Positions 3,401-40,287 of a stretch of 64,000 nucleotides of DNA are shown piece by piece. A program made the translations under genes and the position numbers. Under the pieces are notes generated by a model. That model saw only the letters and a list, made by a program, of their open reading frames with translations, did not search any database and was not told where the DNA came from. The stretch covers positions 109,219 through 173,218 of the forward strand of contig JAMFSS010000008.1 in NCBI GenBank assembly GCA_026225415.1, written 5' to 3'. Position 1 is the stretch's first letter. Each line of letters begins with the position of its first letter. Origin of the DNA: Alphaproteobacteria bacterium (GTDB lineage Bacteria; Pseudomonadota; Alphaproteobacteria; UBA9219).

Positions 3401-3777
3401 AACGTTTATTCACCACACCCGATTGGCGTTTTGACGGCGTCGTCGACACCAGCGCTTCGCATAATTCGGGCAACCAGACCAGCCGCATTTATTACAATCC
3501 GAAACTGGATGCCACGGCTTTGGCAGGCTTGCGCGCGACGCAAACCTTATCGCGCCGTTATGAAACGCTTTATGAACACAGCCTGCAGGTAACGCCCGGC
3601 GGTTATTGGCAACAGGATTACGGCACACGTCCGGCCTGGGTGGTGACTTATGAGCAGAGCCTGCATTTGAATGACACATTGGAATTGGGCGCGGGCGTGA
3701 ATTACACGCATCAGGCTTATGACGGTGTTCAGGAAGATAATATCGGTTTTGTCGTTAATTTGGTGGAACGCTTCTAA
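418..3777 (+). CDS. pgaA: PgaA-like outer-membrane PNAG export porin
   Basis: This is the outer-membrane secretin for poly-beta-1,6-N-acetylglucosamine. A signal peptide ends near AQA-AD, a long TPR superhelix follows, and the last ~270 residues are a beta-barrel ending in Phe (VNLVERF). The chosen start is the ATG with GGGAGAAG five bases upstream; a GTG at 406 is in frame. At about 1119 residues it is longer than E. coli PgaA (about 807). The extra length lies in the TPR part, which contains three copies of a ~145-residue unit, each marked by a W-S-G motif. pgaB follows after 27 bp, so the two are cotranscribed. Family assignment rests on architecture plus the neighbouring pgaBCD genes. Confidence 0.87.
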   Translation: MTVRFKNMDVMMGHALAVALLLAGSPFSTAQAADSTYWREDQGAAMKLARDGNFDDALPVLQRLHKEHPEDADVTRSYLTVLDWSGQDNQVIPLYKTLTEEKQPDYVLLAVGHAYRLLGKPELAADIYRKGLEQYPANADFSTGEIRSLIDAGHLGDAAKAADAALVNAQKSKELNSVVEEARHVYAISEAREGRYTEALQILAELHENYPNDARITRDYLSVEAWSGDNAAALDLYKALPAGQQPDYVYAAAGKAYRDAKQPAEATAVYHEAQVYYPGNRDFQTGEINSLIEAGQNDQAAALATTHLQENANAPEDVKQSLERARQSKVTAQQENAVELARSGKYKEALAILKPLVQQNPTIVSVRQDYIAVLSWSGQDAAAVRAYESFGRGEMPDFALSALAHSYRNIKKFPAALALYKKGHAADPSNEAFTAGIIGCEMDMKHYGEAQKTAEADLRANGNRLTILILASAAADANNKVYEALNYAQRAVASAPNDPAALQAKIHAEQRIGAADAADELAIKNRTALGAREKNEIEGDLGASLVRWGKLEPVSDDQRYKGSDEAISTLDAKIKNGTIQGKPASPEIMRAQFDRIVALRDRFRMQEAIDAYEALRNQGVKVPAYVLGPVGDAYLYLRQPEAARDTYLIALKETPDDFEIRRQLFFAYVECDDYDNAYATIDKLRDDQPMWYYLKGEPERQANANRMMAEIDAGNARLYSGELADASDRLQPIADNAPNDVHSKEALGSLYLTRGWPRAALDEFHLGTRAQDGHDVGTETGAALASLDMRDYASADQQVQVLGKQYPENLDLQRVQRQEDVTNMAELRVNAFYNLAPSGGNVVGGEGYGIDTDLYSAPIDYNWRIFAGTGYAHEDEPNGEGPVAFEHSHAGVEYRDINLVASAAPTYNVYHAHQRAGLEGEGEWTFNDYWTAGGGYESFSADTPLRALNADVTASKFSGNVEWRQSESREIRYDGDVMSFSDGNTRYGNALTYTERLFTTPDWRFDGVVDTSASHNSGNQTSRIYYNPKLDATALAGLRATQTLSRRYETLYEHSLQVTPGGYWQQDYGTRPAWVVTYEQSLHLNDTLELGAGVNYTHQAYDGVQEDNIGFVVNLVERF

Positions 3778-3804
3778 AGCGGATTTTGTGTGAGAAGAAT
3801 GAAG

Positions 3805-5853
3805 ATGCGACGTGAAAATTTCTGTTCTTTGAAACAGTTGATGCGGAACGCGGCCTTATGCGTTGGCGCTTTGCTGCCTGTCGCCTGCGCCTCATCGAAC
3901 CAGACCGATTGGTATAACGCGCCTTCGGCGTCTGCGGAAATGCCCGCAGATTCGTTTATCTCGCTGTGCTATCACAATGTCGAAGATGAAGACCCCGATC
4001 AACGTTTTGACGGCGTAAGCAGCGCGCATCTGGTTGAACAGATGTCGTGGCTGAAACATGAAGGGTATCACCCGGTTTCCATCGACCAAATTCTGGCGGC
4101 CAAAGCGGGCAAGAAGCCCCTGCCCCCCAAAGCGGTTTTGTTGTCGTTCGATGACGGGTATAAATCTTTCTATACGCGCGTTTATCCTATCCTTCAGGTC
4201 TATCATTATCCCGCCGTCCTCGGCATCGTTGATGAATGGATGACGGGCAGCGCCACCCCCACCAAAGGACATCCGGGCGACCGCGTGCATTATGGCGAAA
4301 CGACCATGCCGCGCAGTGCGTTTTTGACATGGGATGAAGTGCGCGAGATGAAACGATCGGGTCTTGTTGAAATTGCATCGCACAGCCACGCTTTGCATTA
4401 CGGCACTGTTGCCAACCCGCAAGGCAATACCGAACCTGTGGCCGTGTCCTTGGCCTATAACACCAAGACACACAGCTATGAAACGCCTGCGCATTATCAG
4501 GCCAAGCTGGATGAAGATGCGGCGGAATCCGCCGATACTTTGCAACGCGAAACGGGATCGCGCCCGCGCGTGATGATCTGGCCTTACGGTGCGTATAACA
4601 GAACCTCCGTGGATGCCGAGAAGAAACACGGCATGCCGATTACCCTGACCCTTGATGACGGGTTTGCGAATATTCATGATCTGTCTGCTGTGCCGCGCTT
4701 TTTGGTGAAAGATGATCCGAACATCGAGGATTTCGCCATCAGCATGCGCCAGATTGGCCGCCCGGAACCGGTGCGTTCGGTTCAGATTGATCTTGATTAT
4801 ATTTATGACCCTGATCCCGCCCAAACCGACCGCAATGTCGATGCATTGGTGTCGCGCCTGCATGACATGAAGATCAGTACGGTTTATTTGCAAGGTTTTG
4901 CCGACCCCCATGGCACAGGTATCGCCAGCGCGACCTATTTCCCCAACCGCGTTTTGCCGATGCGCGCCGATTTGTTTAACCGCGTGGCTTGGCAGTTGGA
5001 CACGCGCGACGATATCAAGGTGTATGGCTGGTTGCCCGTATCATCGTTCGATTTGAAAGACGTTACGCCCGTTATGGCGTGGGATCCCGGTACCGATAGT
5101 GCCGCGCCAGATGCCAAAGCCTATCACCGCGCATCGATTTTCGACCCCAAAGCGCGTCATTTGATTGAAGAAATATACGAAGATATGGCGCGTTATGGTT
5201 CGATTGACGGCGTGCTGTATCATGATGATGCGCTTTTGTCGGATTTCGAGGATGCCAGCCCTGCGGCTTTGGAAGCATATAAAAAGGCCGGATTACCGGA
5301 TTCTATAAAGGCATTGCGTGCCGATCCTGCGACGTTGGACAAATGGACGAATTTCAAAACGCGGGCGCTTATCGATTTCACCAATGATCTGACCAGGCAC
5401 ATGGCGCGTTATCGTTCGCCGTTGACCACTGTGCGCAACATTTACGCGACACCTGTATTAAAGCCCAACAGCGAAGAATGGTTTGCGCAAAATTATCAGG
5501 CGTTCCTGCATAATTATGATTATACCGCAATCGAAGCGATGCCCGCCATGGAAAATGTGCCCGAAAGCGATGCCGATGAATGGTTTGCGACCCTGGTCAA
5601 AACCGCGACCCAGACCGAACCGGATGCGTTGCGCAAATCTGTTTTCGAACTTCAGTCTGTTGATTGGCGCAAAGCAAAAATTGGCGAAGACCGCCGGATT
5701 GATGCATCTGTGCTAAGTAAGCAAATGCGTTATCTGGCGTTGCACAGCGCGACGAATTTCGGTTACTACCCCGATGATTTTATCACCGACACACCACGCG
5801 CCACCGAAATACATAAAGATTTCTCCCTTCAAACCTATCCGTACAGACCATGA
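3805..5853 (+). CDS. pgaB: PgaB-like PNAG N-deacetylase lipoprotein
   Basis: PgaB partially deacetylates PNAG in the periplasm so that PgaA can export it. The N-terminus has a lipoprotein signal (LLPVAC). A polysaccharide-deacetylase domain follows, with metal and catalytic motifs LLSFDDGYKSF and ASHSHALHYG. The C-terminal half matches the glycoside-hydrolase-like domain of PgaB, with GVLYHDDALLSDFED. Start choice: ATG 3805 lies seven bases after GAGAAG; in-frame GTG 3790 and ATG 3799 are alternatives. The stop overlaps the pgaC start as ATGA, indicating translational coupling. Length, about 682 residues, is close to E. coli PgaB. Confidence 0.9.
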   Translation: MRRENFCSLKQLMRNAALCVGALLPVACASSNQTDWYNAPSASAEMPADSFISLCYHNVEDEDPDQRFDGVSSAHLVEQMSWLKHEGYHPVSIDQILAAKAGKKPLPPKAVLLSFDDGYKSFYTRVYPILQVYHYPAVLGIVDEWMTGSATPTKGHPGDRVHYGETTMPRSAFLTWDEVREMKRSGLVEIASHSHALHYGTVANPQGNTEPVAVSLAYNTKTHSYETPAHYQAKLDEDAAESADTLQRETGSRPRVMIWPYGAYNRTSVDAEKKHGMPITLTLDDGFANIHDLSAVPRFLVKDDPNIEDFAISMRQIGRPEPVRSVQIDLDYIYDPDPAQTDRNVDALVSRLHDMKISTVYLQGFADPHGTGIASATYFPNRVLPMRADLFNRVAWQLDTRDDIKVYGWLPVSSFDLKDVTPVMAWDPGTDSAAPDAKAYHRASIFDPKARHLIEEIYEDMARYGSIDGVLYHDDALLSDFEDASPAALEAYKKAGLPDSIKALRADPATLDKWTNFKTRALIDFTNDLTRHMARYRSPLTTVRNIYATPVLKPNSEEWFAQNYQAFLHNYDYTAIEAMPAMENVPESDADEWFATLVKTATQTEPDALRKSVFELQSVDWRKAKIGEDRRIDASVLSKQMRYLALHSATNFGYYPDDFITDTPRATEIHKDFSLQTYPYRP

Positions 5854-7145
5854 CAAAAATATTCGGCTTCTTTCTTATAATGCTCTTCGTCATGGTCGCG
5901 TTGGTGCGCGGCTATATGCTCGATTTCGTTTTTCTGTACCCCATGTTCATGTCCTTCATGTGGGTTATAGGCGGGTTGTATTTTTATGTGCAGTGGGAAC
6001 GCAAGACGCCCGGCCCCGACACCACGCCGGTTATCAAAGACCAGCCATTGGTTTCAGTGCTGATCCCCTGCTATAACGAAGGCCGCAATGCGGAAGAAAC
6101 CATTTATGCAGCCTGTATGCAAAATTGGGAAAACTTTGAAGTGATTGCCATCAATGACGGTTCATCGGACGACACGGTCGATGTGCTGGATGGTTTATTG
6201 GAAAAATATCCGCAATTGCGCGTTATCAATCTGGCGGATAACCAAGGCAAGGCGATGGCGTTGCGCATGGGCGCATTGTTCGCGCGCGGCGAGTTTCTGG
6301 TTTGCGTCGATGGCGATGCCATGATGCACCCCAATGCTTTGGCTTACCTGATCAAGCCGATGCTGGACAATCCGCGCGTCGGCGCTGTTACCGGTAACCC
6401 GCGCATTCGCACACGTTCGACCTTTTTGGGCAAGGTTCAGGTCGGCGAGTTCTCATCCATCATCGGCCTTATCAAACGCGCGCAACGCGTTTACGGGCTT
6501 ATCTTCACCATCTCTGGCGTGATTTGTTCCTATCGTCGTCGCGCCTTGCACCAATGCGGTTACTGGGACCCGACGATGATCACCGAAGACATCGATATCA
6601 GCTGGTCGTTACAGCTTAAGCATTGGCAGATCCAATATGAAGCCAACGCCTTGTGCTGGATTTTGATGCCGGAAACCCTGCGCGGTTTGTGGCGCCAGCG
6701 CGTGCGTTGGGCACAAGGCGGCGCGGAAGTGTTTTTCAAAAACATGAAACGCGTGTGGAATTGGTCCGACCACCGCATGTGGGTTCTTGTGCTTGATTTC
6801 GTTCTTAGCACCGCCTGGGCTTATTCTTACCTGCTGTGCGTGTTGTTGTGGGCATTGGGCAAATTCTACACCATGTCGGCGACATTCAACGTGCCGACAT
6901 TGTTCCCGCCCGCTTTCTGGGGATTGGTTTTGGCCACCGTCAATCTGGTGCAGTTTTTGGCTGCCATGCTTATCGAACGCCGTTATGAAAAGGATTTCAT
7001 TCGCCTGTTCTACTGGATGATCTGGTATCCTTTGTTCTTCTGGCTTATTTCGCTTCTTACAACATTGGAAGGCGTGCCACGCGCCTTGTTCAAGAAACAT
7101 TCCACGCGCGAAGCGTGGGGCGCATCCGATAGAGGTTTCCGATGA
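5850..7145 (+). CDS. pgaC: PgaC-like PNAG synthase, glycosyltransferase family 2
   Basis: This membrane glycosyltransferase polymerises UDP-GlcNAc into PNAG at the inner membrane. Two hydrophobic segments lie at the N-terminus. The GT2 core has NDGSSDDT, VDGDA, TEDIDISW and the processive-synthase motif QRVRW, and further membrane helices form the C-terminus. Both ends overlap neighbours by ATGA junctions (pgaB upstream, pgaD downstream). The length of 431 residues fits PgaC (about 440). In E. coli the PgaC-PgaD pair is activated by cyclic di-GMP; that control is inferred here from family knowledge only. Confidence 0.92.
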   Translation: MTKIFGFFLIMLFVMVALVRGYMLDFVFLYPMFMSFMWVIGGLYFYVQWERKTPGPDTTPVIKDQPLVSVLIPCYNEGRNAEETIYAACMQNWENFEVIAINDGSSDDTVDVLDGLLEKYPQLRVINLADNQGKAMALRMGALFARGEFLVCVDGDAMMHPNALAYLIKPMLDNPRVGAVTGNPRIRTRSTFLGKVQVGEFSSIIGLIKRAQRVYGLIFTISGVICSYRRRALHQCGYWDPTMITEDIDISWSLQLKHWQIQYEANALCWILMPETLRGLWRQRVRWAQGGAEVFFKNMKRVWNWSDHRMWVLVLDFVLSTAWAYSYLLCVLLWALGKFYTMSATFNVPTLFPPAFWGLVLATVNLVQFLAAMLIERRYEKDFIRLFYWMIWYPLFFWLISLLTTLEGVPRALFKKHSTREAWGASDRGFR

Positions 7146-7609
7146 CCAAAGAAAAAAAGCCGTTATTCCTGCCGACGATTATTAAATCATCGGGCAATGT
7201 CACGATGTTGGTGCGCATCCGCGATGCCGTTTTGACCGTTGCGTTGTGGTTTATTTACCTTTACCTGCTGCATGATTGCTATTTCTTTGCCATGGATATT
7301 TTCCACTGGCTGCATGACGGCACCGGCGAGGCGCGCGCCTATCCCAAGCTGCGTATTTTCCAGACGATGAAGGATTACAGCCTTGGGCTTTTGCTGCTGG
7401 CCACCGTTTTTATCGGATGGGCGCAATATAACCGCATTCGTTTTGCCGGTAAAAAGCGCCGCAAAACCACCGAAGCGGTCAGCGTCGATGATCTGGCGCG
7501 CATGTATAAGCTGGACGCCAAAAACCTTGAAGGCTGGCAGAAGAAACGGTCATTGATCGTTCATAATGATGCCAAGGGCCGCGTCACCAAAGTTGAAGCG
7601 GTACATTAG
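7142..7609 (+). CDS. pgaD: PgaD-like PNAG synthesis accessory membrane protein
   Basis: This is a 155-residue protein with two predicted membrane helices (about residues 26-48 and 78-98) and a basic cytoplasmic tail (AGKKRRKTTEAV). Size, topology and position after pgaC identify it as PgaD, the partner that stabilises and activates PgaC. PgaD sequences diverge strongly, so the call depends mostly on context. Its start overlaps pgaC by ATGA, and its stop overlaps by 3 bp the stop of the convergent gene on the other strand. It is slightly longer than the E. coli protein (about 137 residues). Confidence 0.78.
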   Translation: MTKEKKPLFLPTIIKSSGNVTMLVRIRDAVLTVALWFIYLYLLHDCYFFAMDIFHWLHDGTGEARAYPKLRIFQTMKDYSLGLLLLATVFIGWAQYNRIRFAGKKRRKTTEAVSVDDLARMYKLDAKNLEGWQKKRSLIVHNDAKGRVTKVEAVH

Positions 7610-8589
7610 GCTGACATCCGGCGCATTTTTACCAGCAAAGCGGTAACAATCGCGGCGGCGGCGACAGATGCGCCCAACGGATACACCACAGAGGCCACCG
7701 CAGCCCCAATAAGCCCTATATTCGCCAGCATAATGGTTAAAGACGTTTTGGCGTGCCCTGCCTTGGCGGCGGCTTTTTGATAAAAATGCTGACGATGCGC
7801 TTGCCATATTTTTTCACCGCGCAACAGGCGGCGGGCAATCGTAATGCCGCTGTCAGCAAGATAATAAAGCGGCAAAATAATGGCGGCGGCCAGATAACCG
7901 TTGGTCGCTAGCGATAAAAGGCAAAAACCTGTCATATAGCCTAAAGGCACGCTGCCCACATCGCCCATAAAGAGCCGCGCCGGGTGCCAGTTATAGGCGA
8001 GGAAACCCAGACAGCCGCCCGTAAGAACAAGCGTGAGAAAATCGACAGTGGGATTTTCAATCCCCGCCGCGGTCATTACAAGGCATAAGCCGGTGGCAAT
8101 TGAGATGGTTTCAACCCCCGTGATGCCATCGATGCCATCCATAAAATTATACAGATTGATAAACCACGCCCAGCCCAGAATCATGACGGTGCGATCCAGC
8201 CAGAATGGCAAGACACCCCCGAACAAGAACGCATCAGGCGCAAATGAAAAACTGCCGAGGCAGGCGGCGAAAATATGCAGGCTAAGACGCACCGCCGGCG
8301 GGACAGGTCGTTTATCATCCATCCATGAAATAGCGGCCAGCAAAAGCACTGCGGCTATAAGTCCTGCATGGCGATAATCGCCATCGATAAAAAACGCCGC
8401 GCCTATAAGGGCGGGAATGATAACCCCCAGTAAAGCCCAACCGCCCCCGCGTGGCACAGGGATTTTGTGGGAACTGCGCTCATTGGGGATATCCATGACC
8501 GACCGCGCAACCAAGGCGCGCAGGACGAGGCCGGTTAGCCCCAATGAGAGCAGGAAACTGATAAAAATGGTGAGAAGGGAAAAATTCAT
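7606..8589 (-). CDS. WecA/MraY-family polyprenyl-phosphate sugar-1-P transferase
   Basis: This multi-pass membrane enzyme (327 residues) transfers an aminosugar-1-phosphate from a UDP-sugar to undecaprenyl phosphate, the first step of O-antigen or related glycan assembly. Family motifs are visible: ISWMDDKRPVP (DD motif), NFMDGIDGITG and LFMGDVGSVPLG, in the usual order, with hydrophobic segments between. It ends head-to-head with pgaD (stops overlapping). It is not MraY itself, since no peptidoglycan cluster is nearby. The exact sugar substrate cannot be read from sequence. Confidence 0.85.
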   Translation of the reverse strand: MNFSLLTIFISFLLSLGLTGLVLRALVARSVMDIPNERSSHKIPVPRGGGWALLGVIIPALIGAAFFIDGDYRHAGLIAAVLLLAAISWMDDKRPVPPAVRLSLHIFAACLGSFSFAPDAFLFGGVLPFWLDRTVMILGWAWFINLYNFMDGIDGITGVETISIATGLCLVMTAAGIENPTVDFLTLVLTGGCLGFLAYNWHPARLFMGDVGSVPLGYMTGFCLLSLATNGYLAAAIILPLYYLADSGITIARRLLRGEKIWQAHRQHFYQKAAAKAGHAKTSLTIMLANIGLIGAAVASVVYPLGASVAAAAIVTALLVKMRRMSA

Positions 8590-8696
8590 GTGCGTCTTTC
8601 AATCTTTTTTAGAGCCGACCGAACTGTTCAGAATCTTTTCACCTCAGCATGGAAAGATCATGGACATGTTCAGCCTATAACTTATAGGTTAACCCC

Positions 8697-9923
8697 ATGT
8701 TCAACAATCGATTCCCCATGCGCGTGGCGCCTGATTTACCCCGCACCATCGCGTCATCGCTTACCCTGCCGCTTTATGTGCTGATCTCGACGCTTGGGGT
8801 CTTTATGGGCGGTCTTTGGGGGATTGCGGGCATAGGGGGAGCCATCCTCTTGTTCATCGCCGTTTATGTAAAATCCAAAGTTGCAGCTTTGCCCCCGCGC
8901 GAGATTGCTGTTTTTGTCGGAATTGTCCTATGTGTTTTTGCAGTCGAAATACCTTTTTCGTCGCAACCCGTTATCTCGTTACGAATGCTCGCGCAGCTTG
9001 GCAGCATTTTTCTCCCCCTGTCCTTGCTGACATCAGAAAAATTACAACGCGAGGCTTTTGCTTTGCGCCTTGTGCCTGTCATTGCTTTTGCCATGATTAT
9101 CGGCACGCTGGCGCTCGGCATTGAATTGCTGTCGGGCGGCGTATTATTGCATCATGTAAAAAACACGCAAACTGCCCTGAGCCAATATAATCGCGGTTTG
9201 GCCCATACTGTTATATTGGCCTTCCCTCTGTTAGCCGGGCTATGGATTGGCCGCAAAAAACCTGTGGCTGTTTTGTTATTGGCTGTTTTGCTTTTTGCGG
9301 CAAATTTTACAGAGTCGCATACCGCAAAGCTGGCCCTTATCCTTGGTCTTGTCACTGTGCTGGGCGATTTTGTTGTGCCTGTCGTTGTGCCCTATCTTAT
9401 GGGGCTGGCGACATTGGCGTTGCCCTTATGGCCTTTTGCCGCTTCATGGGTTTTTGAAAAACGGCATGGGCTTTATGATACGCTGGCAAAATCGGCGCAA
9501 CATCGTATTGAAATCTGGGATTATCTATCGTACCGGATTTTAGAAAAACCTGTTTTAGGATGGGGATTGGGTTCGACACGCACGCTCGATTTCCATTCAC
9601 CACACAGCGACCAATACCAACATGCGACATTCGCGGCACCGCATGCCCATAATTTAATCGTTTGTGTGTGGGTGGAAACAGGTATGGTTGGGTTAGCGCT
9701 TTGCCTCGCTTTTCTTTTGTTTGCCCTGCGAAGCGCCGCCAGGCTCTCGCCCACCCTTCGCCCCTTTGCCCTTGGGTGCTGGACAGCGGCTTTGACCGTT
9801 AGCCTGTTCGGGTTCGATGTCTGGACGGATGCATTATGGGCCTCTTTCGCCCTTGCTACGTTTATGTTGGGCGGGTTGCAAAATCATTATGCCGTCAAGG
9901 CAACTCCTGCGGAAAAGGTTTAG
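8697..9923 (+). CDS. O-antigen ligase/polymerase-family membrane protein
   Basis: The 408-residue protein has about ten hydrophobic segments and a large periplasmic loop (about residues 255-315) with features of the Wzy_C/WaaL fold: RIEIWDYLSYRILEKPVLGW and, after it, HSDQ and APHAHNLIV. Such proteins ligate or polymerise lipid-linked glycans at the periplasmic face. It is divergent from the transferase gene at 7606-8589, and the two may serve the same glycan. Whether it is a lipopolysaccharide ligase or a polymerase is not decidable here. No strong ribosome binding site is seen before ATG 8697; ATG 8718 is in frame. Confidence 0.75.
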   Translation: MFNNRFPMRVAPDLPRTIASSLTLPLYVLISTLGVFMGGLWGIAGIGGAILLFIAVYVKSKVAALPPREIAVFVGIVLCVFAVEIPFSSQPVISLRMLAQLGSIFLPLSLLTSEKLQREAFALRLVPVIAFAMIIGTLALGIELLSGGVLLHHVKNTQTALSQYNRGLAHTVILAFPLLAGLWIGRKKPVAVLLLAVLLFAANFTESHTAKLALILGLVTVLGDFVVPVVVPYLMGLATLALPLWPFAASWVFEKRHGLYDTLAKSAQHRIEIWDYLSYRILEKPVLGWGLGSTRTLDFHSPHSDQYQHATFAAPHAHNLIVCVWVETGMVGLALCLAFLLFALRSAARLSPTLRPFALGCWTAALTVSLFGFDVWTDALWASFALATFMLGGLQNHYAVKATPAEKV

Positions 9924-10029
9924 CGCCGGGTGCGTTGCCAAAAATAATTCGCGTGTCTATTAATCCCTATCGAACTTTTATATTTTTTATTTCAATTTGT
10001 TGTTTCCCGCCGACAACCAAGGTTTATCA

Positions 10030-10485
10030 ATGACAAAATATTTATCCGTCTTGCTTCTAGGCGCCGTCATATTTACGTTTCCTGCCCATGCGGCTTCGCC
10101 TGATCTTTCGCCCCAAACGGCGCACAGCGAAGGCGATGTGGACGCCAATAAACATGATCTTGTTCAGGGTTCGCATGTCGAAGGGCATATCGCTTTTCTA
10201 AAGGCGGAGATCGGGATTTCAGCCGCGCAGGAAGCAGAGTGGCAGCCCGTGGCCGCCGCCATGCGTGAAGATGTGCGCAACCTGAATGATGCGGAGCATC
10301 GCATAGCGCGCCAACAGGGTTCGGATACTGCATTGGACTATTTGCAAAACCGGGTTCTGTTCGCCAATCTTCGCGCACAGGGTGAACAACGTTTTCTGAC
10401 AGCTTTTCAACCGCTCTATGGTGTTTTGTCATCCCAACAGAAACGCGTGGCGGATGAATTGCTCATCCCCGCTGCGCCGCAATGA
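10030..10485 (+). CDS. Spy/CpxP-like periplasmic protein (LTXXQ family)
   Basis: A signal peptide of about 22 residues (ends PAHA-AS) precedes a helical protein of about 130 residues. Two helices resemble the LTXXQ repeats of Spy/CpxP: ISAAQEAEWQPVAAAMRE and LSSQQKRVADEL. Such proteins act as periplasmic chaperones or stress sensors. The start used is ATG 10030, directly before the signal peptide (MTKYLSVLL); an earlier frame start at 9997 would put 11 extra residues before it. The stop overlaps the next start as ATGA, so the two small envelope genes form a pair. Confidence 0.65.
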   Translation: MTKYLSVLLLGAVIFTFPAHAASPDLSPQTAHSEGDVDANKHDLVQGSHVEGHIAFLKAEIGISAAQEAEWQPVAAAMREDVRNLNDAEHRIARQQGSDTALDYLQNRVLFANLRAQGEQRFLTAFQPLYGVLSSQQKRVADELLIPAAPQ

Positions 10486-10772
10486 TTGCCATGAAATCCA
10501 TGCACACTCCTCGCCTCGCAAGGGTCGCGTTATTGTTTGGCATTCTGAGCCTCAGCTCATGCGTTGTTGATCCTGGCTATTATGATCCCGGCCCACCGGC
10601 TCCTTATTATGGCGGCGCTTATTATGGCTATGGGGCCGCCTATCCGTGGAACTCTGGCGTTGATATAGATATTGCCGGTGGCTATGGCCATGGTGGTGGT
10701 TATCGCGGTGGGTATAGAGGTGGCGGCAGGGGCGGATTTAGCCGCGGTGGCGGTAGAGGTTTCCGCCATTAA
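10482..10772 (+). CDS. Small Gly/Tyr-rich lipoprotein
   Basis: The 96-residue product has a lipoprotein signal with lipobox LSLSSC. The mature part is almost entirely Gly, Tyr, Pro and Arg (YYDPGPPAPYYGG, then GGYRGGYRGGGRGG), so it is low complexity and probably exposed in the periplasm. No function can be assigned. ATG 10482 overlaps the stop of the Spy-like gene; ATG 10491 is an alternative start. A GC-rich hairpin follows the stop by 4 bp. Confidence 0.65.
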   Translation: MIAMKSMHTPRLARVALLFGILSLSSCVVDPGYYDPGPPAPYYGGAYYGYGAAYPWNSGVDIDIAGGYGHGGGYRGGYRGGGRGGFSRGGGRGFRH

Positions 10773-36939: not shown

Positions 36940-37185
36940 TTATCCTATGTTATATCTCTGTAGAGCGTATGTATGATGTGCATAGCCAGAAAGTGCAGAG
37001 AGAACACCATACCCTACAATAAATCCAGCAATAGATAAATGATCAAAAGAAGGTTCAGCAATCACCCTAGGAAGCTCCCAAACAAGGGCACCAACTGCTG
37101 CAAAAGCTCCAACAGTATTTGCAATACAGAGAACAACTTCATCTGCACTTGTCTTCCATAATTCCTTAACACCAATTTTTTGCAT
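36940..37185 (-). CDS. Small membrane protein, 81 residues
   Basis: I do not recognise a family. Two hydrophobic stretches (about residues 19-41 and 51-68) suggest a two-helix membrane protein with a His pair (GYAHHTYALQRY) at the end. AGGAG lies just before the ATG and a good promoter lies upstream, so expression is likely. It is clearly more AT-rich than pgsA and putA on either side, which suggests later acquisition. It converges with pgsA. Confidence 0.65.
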   Translation of the reverse strand: MQKIGVKELWKTSADEVVLCIANTVGAFAAVGALVWELPRVIAEPSFDHLSIAGFIVGYGVLSALSGYAHHTYALQRYNIG

Positions 37186-37272: not shown

Positions 37273-38838
37273 TTACTCCGAAGCCGCCATTAAAAGGGAC
37301 GCATTCCCGCCTGCCGCAGTCGTGTTAATGCTCGTCACGCGTTCGCAGGCAAAGCGGAGCAGATAATGCGGGCCGCCCGCCTTGGGTCCTGTGCCCGACA
37401 GCCCCTCGCCACCGAAAGGTTGCACACCGACAACAGCACCGATCAATGACCGGTTCACATAAAAATTACCGACATGCAAATCGCGTTCGACCAATGCCAC
37501 GCGATCTTCTATGCGGCTATGTAACCCACCCGTCAACCCAAACCCTGTTGCATTAATCTGCGCAATCAGTGCACCCAGCTCTTCGGGTTTATAGCGCACG
37601 ATATGCAAAATGGGGCCGAACACTTCATCGGTCAGAAAATCAATCGCCGGAATCTCCCACGCTTGCGGTGCCACAAAATTGCCGGCCAGCCCCGATACAT
37701 CGCATGAGTAAATTTCCTTTGCGCCATCCCGCAAATAATCAATATGAGTTAATAATCGTTCCTTGGCCGCATCGTCAATCACGGGGCCAACATCGGTCGA
37801 CAGGCGCGACGGATGCCCCACCACCAATTCACGCATCGCGCCACGCAACATGGCAATGATTTTATCGGCGACATCATGCGGTAAACACAAAATGCGTAAG
37901 GCCGAGCACCGTTGCCCCGCCGAACGGAATGCCGACGTCACAACATCATCCACCACCTGTTCCGGCAGAGCGGAATTATCGACAATCAACGCATTCTGCC
38001 CACCGGTTTCGGCAATCAAAGGCACAATCGCGCCGTCCTTGGCCGCCAGTGCGCGGTTAATCGCCCGCGCCGCTTTGCCAGAACCCGTGAAGGCCACACC
38101 GGCCACATGCGGATCCGCGACAATCGCCGCGCCCACATCCGCACCACCCGTCACCAATGTGAACACATCTTGCGGAATACCCGCATCACGCATCATCGCA
38201 GCCACAAATTGCGCAATACGCGGTGTCTGCGGTGCGGGTTTGGCGACAACCGCGTTGCCCGCAACCAATGCCGCAACCACCTGCCCCAGAAAAATCGCCA
38301 AGGGGAAATTCCATGGGCTGATGCACACAAAAACGCCGCGCCCTGCGTGACGCAGATAATTTTTCTCGCCGGTCGGACCAGGCAATGTTATCGGCGCAAA
38401 ATCCACCCGCGCGCGCATCGCGTAATAACGGCAGAAATCGACCGCTTCGCGTACTTCGCCCAAAGCATCGGGAATAGTTTTACCGCCCTCACTTATCATC
38501 AACGCAATTAACGCGGCATTATTCGCCTCTAATTTATCGGCCAGCTTTTCCAAACAGCCCGCCCGCGCATCCACATCCACCCGCGACCAGCCGTGAAACG
38601 CCGCCTGCGCCTTGGCAAAAACCGCATCAATATCCGGCGTGGTTTCGGCAAATTCTGGCATACGGAACGCGGCGATATCTGCCAACAAAGCATCGGTCAC
38701 AAAAGGATCCGCTAAATCCATCCCGCGCGAATTGCGCCGTTCCGGCAAATAGATATCCGCCGCCACGCGCACTGCAGGATGCCGTACGCCTGTCTGTTTG
38801 CGAAAAATATCTACGGGGTCGGCCACTAGTTCAGCCAC
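37273..38838 (-). CDS. putA: PutA C-terminal part: P5C dehydrogenase
   Basis: This half of PutA oxidises L-glutamate-semialdehyde/P5C to glutamate with NAD+. Motifs: SPWNFPLAIF, AFTGSGKAARAI, the general-base Glu in AETGGQNALIV, and the nucleophilic Cys in SAGQRCSALRIL. The C-terminus TTAAGGNASLL is that of PutA. It lies in the same frame as the proline dehydrogenase upstream, separated only by one TAG codon at 38839-38841. Its first codon is GTG (38836-38838), with AAGGA 7 bases before it, so it could be started separately. Without the TAG the two would form one protein of about 1004 residues. Confidence 0.9.
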   Translation of the reverse strand: MAELVADPVDIFRKQTGVRHPAVRVAADIYLPERRNSRGMDLADPFVTDALLADIAAFRMPEFAETTPDIDAVFAKAQAAFHGWSRVDVDARAGCLEKLADKLEANNAALIALMISEGGKTIPDALGEVREAVDFCRYYAMRARVDFAPITLPGPTGEKNYLRHAGRGVFVCISPWNFPLAIFLGQVVAALVAGNAVVAKPAPQTPRIAQFVAAMMRDAGIPQDVFTLVTGGADVGAAIVADPHVAGVAFTGSGKAARAINRALAAKDGAIVPLIAETGGQNALIVDNSALPEQVVDDVVTSAFRSAGQRCSALRILCLPHDVADKIIAMLRGAMRELVVGHPSRLSTDVGPVIDDAAKERLLTHIDYLRDGAKEIYSCDVSGLAGNFVAPQAWEIPAIDFLTDEVFGPILHIVRYKPEELGALIAQINATGFGLTGGLHSRIEDRVALVERDLHVGNFYVNRSLIGAVVGVQPFGGEGLSGTGPKAGGPHYLLRFACERVTSINTTAAGGNASLLMAASE

Positions 38839-40287
38839 CTACACATCCTTGTCCAACATGCGATGCACGAACGAACTGTTCGCACCATTTTCCAAAATGC
38901 GCCGCACAAGATACCCTAACAACACATCATGCGAACCAACGGGCGCATAAATACACCCATGCAGCCCGTCGCGGCGCATAAGGTCGTGCAATTCGCCGCC
39001 CATACCATGCAACCTTTGAAACTCGATACCGTTCGCGTCACCGGCCAAGGCGCAAATATGCGCCACGCTCATCGCATTATGCCCACCGAAAACCGGGTTG
39101 ATAACATCACGTGCGCCCAACAACCGCCGCGCACAGGCGTTATAGGCAAGGTCTGTATTATTCTTGCGCGTATAAACAGAAAAATCCGGCCAGCCGCGTT
39201 CCTGTCCGCGTTTAATTTCCGTATCCCAATAGGCACCTTTGACCAAACGCACATGAATGCGCCGGCCATTTTGCCGCGCCAATGCCGCCAGAAAATCAAT
39301 CACCGCCGGTGCGCGTTTATCATAGGCCTGCACTGCAAAACCAAGCCCACCCCAATCCGCAGGCAGTTGTTCGATAACGGCAGCCCCAACCTCCAACGAT
39401 AATTGCAAACGGTCGCCTTCTTCCGCATCAATCGTCACCGGCATATCAAATGCCGCCGCGCGTTGGCATAACGCCACTAATACCGACACCATTTCACCCA
39501 ACACACGATCATGCTGCGCCATTTCATAACGTGGATGGAGTGCGGAAAGCTTGACCGATATGCCGGAAGGACGCGGAAAATCATGCGCCTTCTGATGCGC
39601 ACCGATTTTATCTATCGCCTGTTCGTAATCGCGCAGATAACGCGCAGCATCCTCTGCCGTTCGCGCACCTTCGCCCAACATGTCGAAAGAATAACGCACG
39701 CCGTCGCGCATGGCGCTTTCGGCGCGTTGCAATGCCTTGTCTATCGTTTCGCCCATTACGAATTGATCGGCCATCCATTGCATTGCGACCTTGATCGCCT
39801 CGCGGATAACCGGTTGCCCCGCGCGCGAAACCAGATGTTTCAACGCACTGCCCGCGCTGGCTTTATCGTCATCCAGTTTGATGATTTTGCCGGTCAAAGC
39901 CAATGCCCATCCGGTCATATTAATCGACCAGGAACTACCCCCCGACAAAGCCTTGTCCCAATGGGCTTCATCTAATTTATCCTTGATCAACGCATCCGCC
40001 GTCGCGCGGTCGGGTATGCGCAGCAAGGCTTCAGCCAGACACATCAACGCCAAACCTTCTTGCGAGGTCAGCCCGAACCGCGCCAGCAAATCGGTTACTG
40101 TTGCCGATGGTTTATGGGTGCGGCGGATTTCTTCAACCCACGCGCCCGCCCGCGCCTGAGCCGCCCGCCGCGCTTCCGGCGGCAAGGTTGCATCGGGCAA
40201 TAGTTTTTCTAAACACGCCCCCTCATCCGCGCGATACAGCGCGGCAAGGATGGCGAAATGGTGCTGGGAATCGAATGAGATAGACAT
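38839..40287 (-). CDS. putA: PutA N-terminal part: proline dehydrogenase, ends at in-frame TAG
   Basis: This half oxidises proline to P5C with FAD. It lacks the N-terminal ribbon-helix-helix DNA-binding domain of E. coli PutA. Visible parts are the helical arm (SWSINMTGWALALTGKI) and the barrel (GISVKLSALHPRYEMAQHD; IDAEEGDRLQLSLEV; RLVKGAYWDTEIKRGQ). The C-terminal helix GANSSFVHRML runs straight into the linker of PutA. The frame ends at TAG 38839-38841, and the next codon continues with VAELVADPV, the normal PutA sequence. Thus this is either a nonsense-split gene, a read-through gene, or two coupled genes. Confidence 0.9.
   Translation of the reverse strand: MSISFDSQHHFAILAALYRADEGACLEKLLPDATLPPEARRAAQARAGAWVEEIRRTHKPSATVTDLLARFGLTSQEGLALMCLAEALLRIPDRATADALIKDKLDEAHWDKALSGGSSWSINMTGWALALTGKIIKLDDDKASAGSALKHLVSRAGQPVIREAIKVAMQWMADQFVMGETIDKALQRAESAMRDGVRYSFDMLGEGARTAEDAARYLRDYEQAIDKIGAHQKAHDFPRPSGISVKLSALHPRYEMAQHDRVLGEMVSVLVALCQRAAAFDMPVTIDAEEGDRLQLSLEVGAAVIEQLPADWGGLGFAVQAYDKRAPAVIDFLAALARQNGRRIHVRLVKGAYWDTEIKRGQERGWPDFSVYTRKNNTDLAYNACARRLLGARDVINPVFGGHNAMSVAHICALAGDANGIEFQRLHGMGGELHDLMRRDGLHGCIYAPVGSHDVLLGYLVRRILENGANSSFVHRMLDKDV

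What the first reader, a model, noticed from the sequence alone, without database searches (positions are those of the whole stretch)
37273..40287. putA split by a single in-frame TAG between its two enzyme domains
Seen: proline dehydrogenase ends with KDV-TAG, and the very next codon continues VAELVADPV in the same frame into P5C dehydrogenase. Both halves keep all key motifs. AAGGA lies seven bases before the GTG that follows the stop, so re-initiation would give two separate enzymes. TAG is used as a normal stop elsewhere here (for example pgaD, kdpF, uvrB). Possibilities are gene fission, amber read-through, a recent nonsense mutation, or an assembly error.
Basis: partly seen in the sequence, partly recalled or inferred. 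Interest (0 to 1): 0.75.

Follow-up and report, generated by a model that had tools for sequence, protein, structure and literature searches.

The report
putA split by one stop codon
In this alphaproteobacterium a single TAG codon divides the normally fused proline-degrading enzyme PutA exactly between its two enzyme parts, right in front of a ready-made translation start, so it probably now makes two separate proteins; it looks like a young one-step gene fission, though an early loss-of-function mutation cannot be excluded.

Summary
On the minus strand, proline dehydrogenase (40287..38839) ends in TAG, and the next codon, GTG (38838), opens an in-frame P5C dehydrogenase ORF to 37273, with AAGGA seven bases before that GTG. 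All seven other family genomes that carry putA have it uninterrupted, including the syntenic copy of one of the closest relatives (G005). G005 has TCG at this codon and already carries AAGGA-N7-GTG inside its fused gene, so the start signal probably predates the stop and one base change would create the split. The TAG sits in a variable loop between the domains. Both halves keep the conserved residues, the PutA alpha-domain and the C-terminal lid, and show no clear relaxed selection or second lesion. Neither half has a second copy in this genome. No CTA-anticodon tRNA was found and RF1 is intact, so read-through is unlikely. Best reading: a recent one-step fission into two translationally coupled cistrons whose products probably still assemble. 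The main rival is a young nonsense mutation at the start of gene loss, because putA is undetected in 6 of 9 genus mates. A wrong base or minority strain cannot be excluded without reads. No other linker split appeared in the listed results of roughly 900 searched genomes.

The parts
38839..40287 (-). Proline dehydrogenase half of PutA (482 aa, ATG start, TAG stop): PutA N-terminal arm, alpha-domain and catalytic barrel
38839..38841 (-). In-frame TAG in the loop between the two enzyme domains; relatives have TCG, CCG, CCA, CCC, GGT, AGT, TTG or GAT at this column
   Evidence: loop position in the structure model
38846..38850 (-). AAGGA Shine-Dalgarno-like motif, 7 bases before the GTG; also codes for the Lys-Asp of the proline dehydrogenase C-terminus
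   Evidence: the same motif and spacing in G005
38836..38838 (-). GTG, probable start codon of the separate P5C dehydrogenase, directly after the TAG
37273..38838 (-). P5C (glutamate semialdehyde) dehydrogenase half of PutA (521 aa), keeping the catalytic residues and the PutA-type C-terminal lid

Best explanation
A type A (bifunctional, about 1000-residue) PutA was recently split into two cistrons by one nonsense change in its inter-domain linker. SHOWN by sequence: relatives of the same family and genus that carry putA have it fused; a TAG separates the halves at a variable loop; an AAGGA-N7-GTG start that also exists in the fused gene of G005 stands right at the stop; both halves are otherwise intact. 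INFERRED: ribosomes end at TAG and at once re-initiate at the adjacent GTG, giving coupled amounts of a 482-residue proline dehydrogenase and a 521-residue P5C dehydrogenase. These probably still dock in the PutA manner, because the domains and the C-terminal lid that shape the substrate tunnel are retained, and together oxidise proline to glutamate.
For: Same-locus comparison: pgsA-putA-ugd is syntenic in G005, where putA is one frame of about 1002 codons. Every other putA found in the family is uninterrupted: G002, G005, G007 (cut by a contig end), G013, G015, G016 and G019. G005 reads GAC AAG GAT ATT TCG GTG where the window reads GAC AAG GAT GTG TAG GTG. The TAG falls between the last barrel helix (453-468) and the first Rossmann helix (528-540), in coil, in a model with mean pLDDT 79. 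Residues invariant over 13 PutAs, window included, cover the P5CDH residues N660, K683, E760, C794 and E888 and most of the PRODH YLVRR motif. Changes at otherwise family-invariant sites are 7/181 and 6/232, like those of the fused relatives. dN is well below dS in both halves, though dS is near saturation. The alignment to BjPutA runs to residue 1000, while alignments to monofunctional P5CDHs stop near 979; in PutAs the C-terminus forms a lid on the channelling tunnel (PMC12398946). Each half has a single copy in this genome. Re-initiation needs overlaps or very short distances, and such gene pairs often encode subunits of one complex (PMC10666635). Separate PruB and PruA of M. tuberculosis show evidence of channelling (PMC10537722).
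Against: Only one genome has the split and no close strain was available, so persistence of the TAG is not shown. putA was not detected in 6 of 9 genus mates, so loss is tolerated. The re-initiation signal is not a new adaptation, since G005 has it without the stop. The G000 branch is slightly longer than its genus mates' (0.27 against 0.17-0.23), and one outgroup gives a borderline rate excess in both halves. No expression data exist.
Confidence: 0.6

Rival explanations
1. A young nonsense mutation: putA has just taken the first step towards loss, and the neat position is luck. Some P5C dehydrogenase may still be made from the adjacent GTG, but nothing maintains it.
For: putA was not detected in 6 of 9 genus mates and is patchy across the family. 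putA genes with several lesions exist in other alphaproteobacteria: G319 (two in-frame stops) and G029 (frame changes). A very recent stop leaves no trace of relaxed selection. The start signal was there before the stop.
Against: No second lesion in 3015 bases. In one search, in G005 exactly one of 207 codons one base from a stop lies in the linker with a start and Shine-Dalgarno behind it, so a random stop would rarely land there. The 18 or so other genes comparable with G005 around it look intact.
Confidence: 0.25
2. The TAG is a wrong base or a minority-strain allele in the assembly, and the real gene is fused.
For: Only one base separates TAG from the codon in G005. Reads were not available. 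The assembly is in 11 contigs, and no tRNA-Ile(GAT) or Ala(TGC) was among the 40 tRNAs found, so it is probably not fully closed.
Against: No other interrupted gene was seen among about 18 orthologues compared with G005 in the same region. A random error would rarely hit this very codon.
Confidence: 0.1
3. Amber read-through yields full-length PutA, with or without a share of the short product.
For: The frame continues without shift and the linker conserved in fused PutAs (for example PERRNSRG) is retained.
Against: None of 40 tRNAs has anticodon CTA. RF1 is intact. TAG is an ordinary stop of 11 window ORFs. The RNA around the stop folds no better than shuffles (z -0.2).
Confidence: 0.05

Closest known systems
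Type A bifunctional PutA (Bradyrhizobium japonicum BjPutA, PDB 3HAZ)
   Same: Aligns nearly end to end (residues 16-1000, 1038 bits): arm, alpha-domain, PRODH barrel, linker, P5CDH, C-terminal lid
   Different: Here a stop and a start codon lie in the linker, so the halves are encoded as two polypeptides
Monofunctional PRODH + P5CDH pairs (Thermus, Mycobacterium PruB/PruA)
   Same: Two separate proteins for the two steps of proline oxidation; channelling between separate enzymes reported for M. tuberculosis (PMC10537722)
   Different: The window halves score far better against PutA models than against the monofunctional Thermus PRODH model (611 against 74 bits) and keep the PutA alpha-domain and C-terminal lid, so they derive from a PutA
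Translationally coupled adjacent genes (termination-reinitiation)
   Same: Start codon directly at the stop of the upstream gene, in the distance range where coupling works (PMC10666635)
   Different: Here the distance is 0 nt (TAGGTG), not the commonest -4 or -1 overlap, and both cistrons come from one ancestral frame

Membership tests
Type A PutA (bifunctional proline utilization A) | PRODH and P5CDH domains with PutA-type arm, alpha-domain and C-terminal lid motif | tested here: met
Type A PutA (bifunctional proline utilization A) | Both activities encoded in one uninterrupted reading frame | tested here: not met
   TAG at 38841-38839; relatives of the family meet it
Type A PutA (bifunctional proline utilization A) | Buried tunnel channelling P5C between the two active sites | not testable with these tools
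   Needs the complex of the two halves and a kinetic assay; the C-terminal lid segment is retained
Monofunctional PRODH / P5CDH enzymes | Separate genes for the two enzymes | tested here: met
Monofunctional PRODH / P5CDH enzymes | Sequence kinship with the monofunctional families rather than PutA | tested here: not met
   PutA models score far above the monofunctional PRODH and P5CDH models
Translationally coupled gene pair | Same strand, start codon within a few bases of the upstream stop, ribosome-binding motif before it | tested here: met
   0-nt distance, AAGGA at spacing 7
Translationally coupled gene pair | Translation of the second gene depends on translation of the first | not testable with these tools
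   Needs a two-reporter experiment
Programmed amber read-through / stop reassignment | Suppressor tRNA with anticodon CTA, or loss of RF1 | tested here: not met
   40 tRNAs, none CTA; RF1 intact; tRNAs in unassembled sequence cannot be excluded
Pseudogene | Further lesions or relaxed selection | tested here: inconclusive
   None found, but a very recent stop would not show them

The most novel reading that the evidence does not exclude
The fused putA of the genus already carried a working internal start in its linker (seen as AAGGA-N7-GTG in G005), so that ancestors made both full-length PutA and some free P5C dehydrogenase; one stop codon then turned this into a complete fission with little cost, leaving a natural split PutA that still channels its intermediate between two unlinked chains.
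Probability: 0.15. Interest if true: 0.6.

Novelty: new variant of a known kind. Interest (0 to 1): 0.42.

Why it matters
Gene fission is usually inferred long after the event. Here a fused relative at the same locus, a single-base route and a ready-made internal start are all visible, so the first step of a fission can be tested directly. A natural split PutA would also show whether covalent linkage is needed for channelling of the reactive intermediate P5C.

Tried and rejected
Suppressor tRNA or stop reassignment: none of 40 tRNAs has CTA and RF1 is intact. Structured read-through signal: the 101 bases around the stop fold no better than shuffles. A second, intact PRODH or P5CDH elsewhere in the genome: none found. 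Other linker splits: surveys of 387 class and 396 phylum genomes. Among the listed matches, which are the best-scoring and not all of them, the only short frames besides the window are G237 and G114 (both run off a contig end) and the degraded G319; G029, also degraded, came from the relatives and order-level searches. The genus-internal tree is unresolved, so whether TCG with AAGGA-N7-GTG is ancestral to G000 and G005 is not shown. YN00 dN/dS failed for all pairs with the window; NG86 values were used. One paper search on linkers in BjPutA found nothing, and the Thermus channelling paper is not held.

Full report
WHAT IS THERE. On the minus strand, an ORF of 482 codons (40287..38839) ends in TAG, and the very next codon, GTG, opens an in-frame ORF of 521 codons (38838..37273). 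The first is a proline dehydrogenase with the PutA-type N-terminal and alpha-domains, the second an aldehyde dehydrogenase of the P5C type. Read through the TAG, the 1004 residues align over nearly their whole length with the crystallised type A PutA of Bradyrhizobium japonicum (residues 16-1000, 1038 bits).

RELATIVES. The genome is 2.02 Mb in 11 contigs and holds one copy of each half. In the same family, seven other genomes carry putA, all with one uninterrupted frame: G002, G005 and G007 in the genus (G007 cut by a contig end), and G013, G015, G016 and G019. G005 has the same neighbours in the same order (uvrC, pgsA, putA, ugd). putA was not detected in six of nine genus mates. In the short stretches around pgsA retrieved from the genus mates, only G005 showed putA next to it.

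THE CODON. At the TAG column relatives have TCG (G005), CCG, CCA, CCC, GGT, AGT, TTG or GAT: a variable site. The structure model puts it in coil between the last barrel helix and the first helix of the Rossmann domain. G005 reads GACAAGGATATTTCGGTG where the window reads GACAAGGATGTGTAGGTG. So AAGGA, its seven-base spacing and the GTG are present in the fused gene of a relative, and one base change from a G005-like sequence would give the split. The genus tree is not resolved inside, so a G005-like ancestor is likely, not proven. Over 14 putA genes, about 1.2% of codons one base from a stop are followed within three codons by an in-frame start with a five-base Shine-Dalgarno match; only the window and G005 have this in the linker. 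These criteria were set after seeing the case, so the figure is a guide, not a test.

SELECTION. Both halves keep the columns that are invariant over 12 other PutAs, with one exception (a Thr to Ser in the first half), and the catalytic Cys794 and Glu760 are among those kept. Changes at sites invariant in the other family members number 7/181 and 6/232, within the range of the fused relatives. Relative-rate tests against G005 are not significant with three outgroups and borderline with the fourth, in both halves alike. dN is well below dS, but dS is near saturation. There is no second stop or frameshift. About 18 other genes comparable with G005 over the surrounding region look intact. A very recent stop would leave the same picture, so this does not settle the age.

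DECODING. Forty tRNAs were found, none with anticodon CTA; RF1 is intact. tRNA-Ile(GAT) and Ala(TGC) were not among them, so some sequence is probably missing from the assembly. TAG ends 11 of 58 window ORFs of at least 100 aa. No unusual RNA fold surrounds the stop. Read-through is therefore unlikely.

MECHANISM. Termination at TAG followed by re-initiation at the adjacent GTG is the natural reading: coupling works at overlaps and very short distances, and such pairs are enriched for subunits of complexes (PMC10666635). The P5CDH half keeps the PutA C-terminal segment that forms a lid over the channelling tunnel (PMC12398946), a segment that alignments to monofunctional P5CDHs do not reach. 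Separate enzymes of M. tuberculosis show evidence of channelling (PMC10537722). That the halves assemble here is inference.

SURVEYS. In 387 class genomes and 396 phylum genomes, overlapping in part, the listed matches contain no other split at the linker; lower-scoring matches were not listed. G237 and G114 have short frames because they run off a contig end. G319 has an in-frame TAG in PRODH and a second stop in P5CDH, and G029 has several frame changes.

VERDICT. A one-step fission of a type A PutA into two probably coupled cistrons (0.6), against a young nonsense mutation (0.25), a base or strain artefact (0.1) and read-through (0.05). It is a new variant of a known kind. Its value lies in the fused relative at the same locus and the start signal that appears to predate the stop.

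Noticed in passing
window 36940-37185 (-): 81-codon hydrophobic ORF with a strong AGGAG motif in an AT-rich stretch (34% GC against 52-56% around it), no Pfam match, no match in the syntenic G005 locus
   Followed up: partly
L170 (G319:C68) about 3516-6515 (-): putA of another alphaproteobacterium with an in-frame TAG in PRODH and a second, non-TAG stop in P5CDH: apparently decaying
   Followed up: partly
L121 (G029:C2) about 7471-10490 (-): putA broken by several frame changes in a two-contig genome of the same order: decay or long-read indel errors
   Followed up: no
genus of the window (G001, G003, G004, G006, G008, G009): putA not detected in six of nine genus mates, five of them at least 96% complete
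   Followed up: partly
own genome G000: No tRNA-Ile(GAT) or tRNA-Ala(TGC) among the 40 tRNAs found; the rRNA operon may be missing from the assembly (not tested)
   Followed up: no
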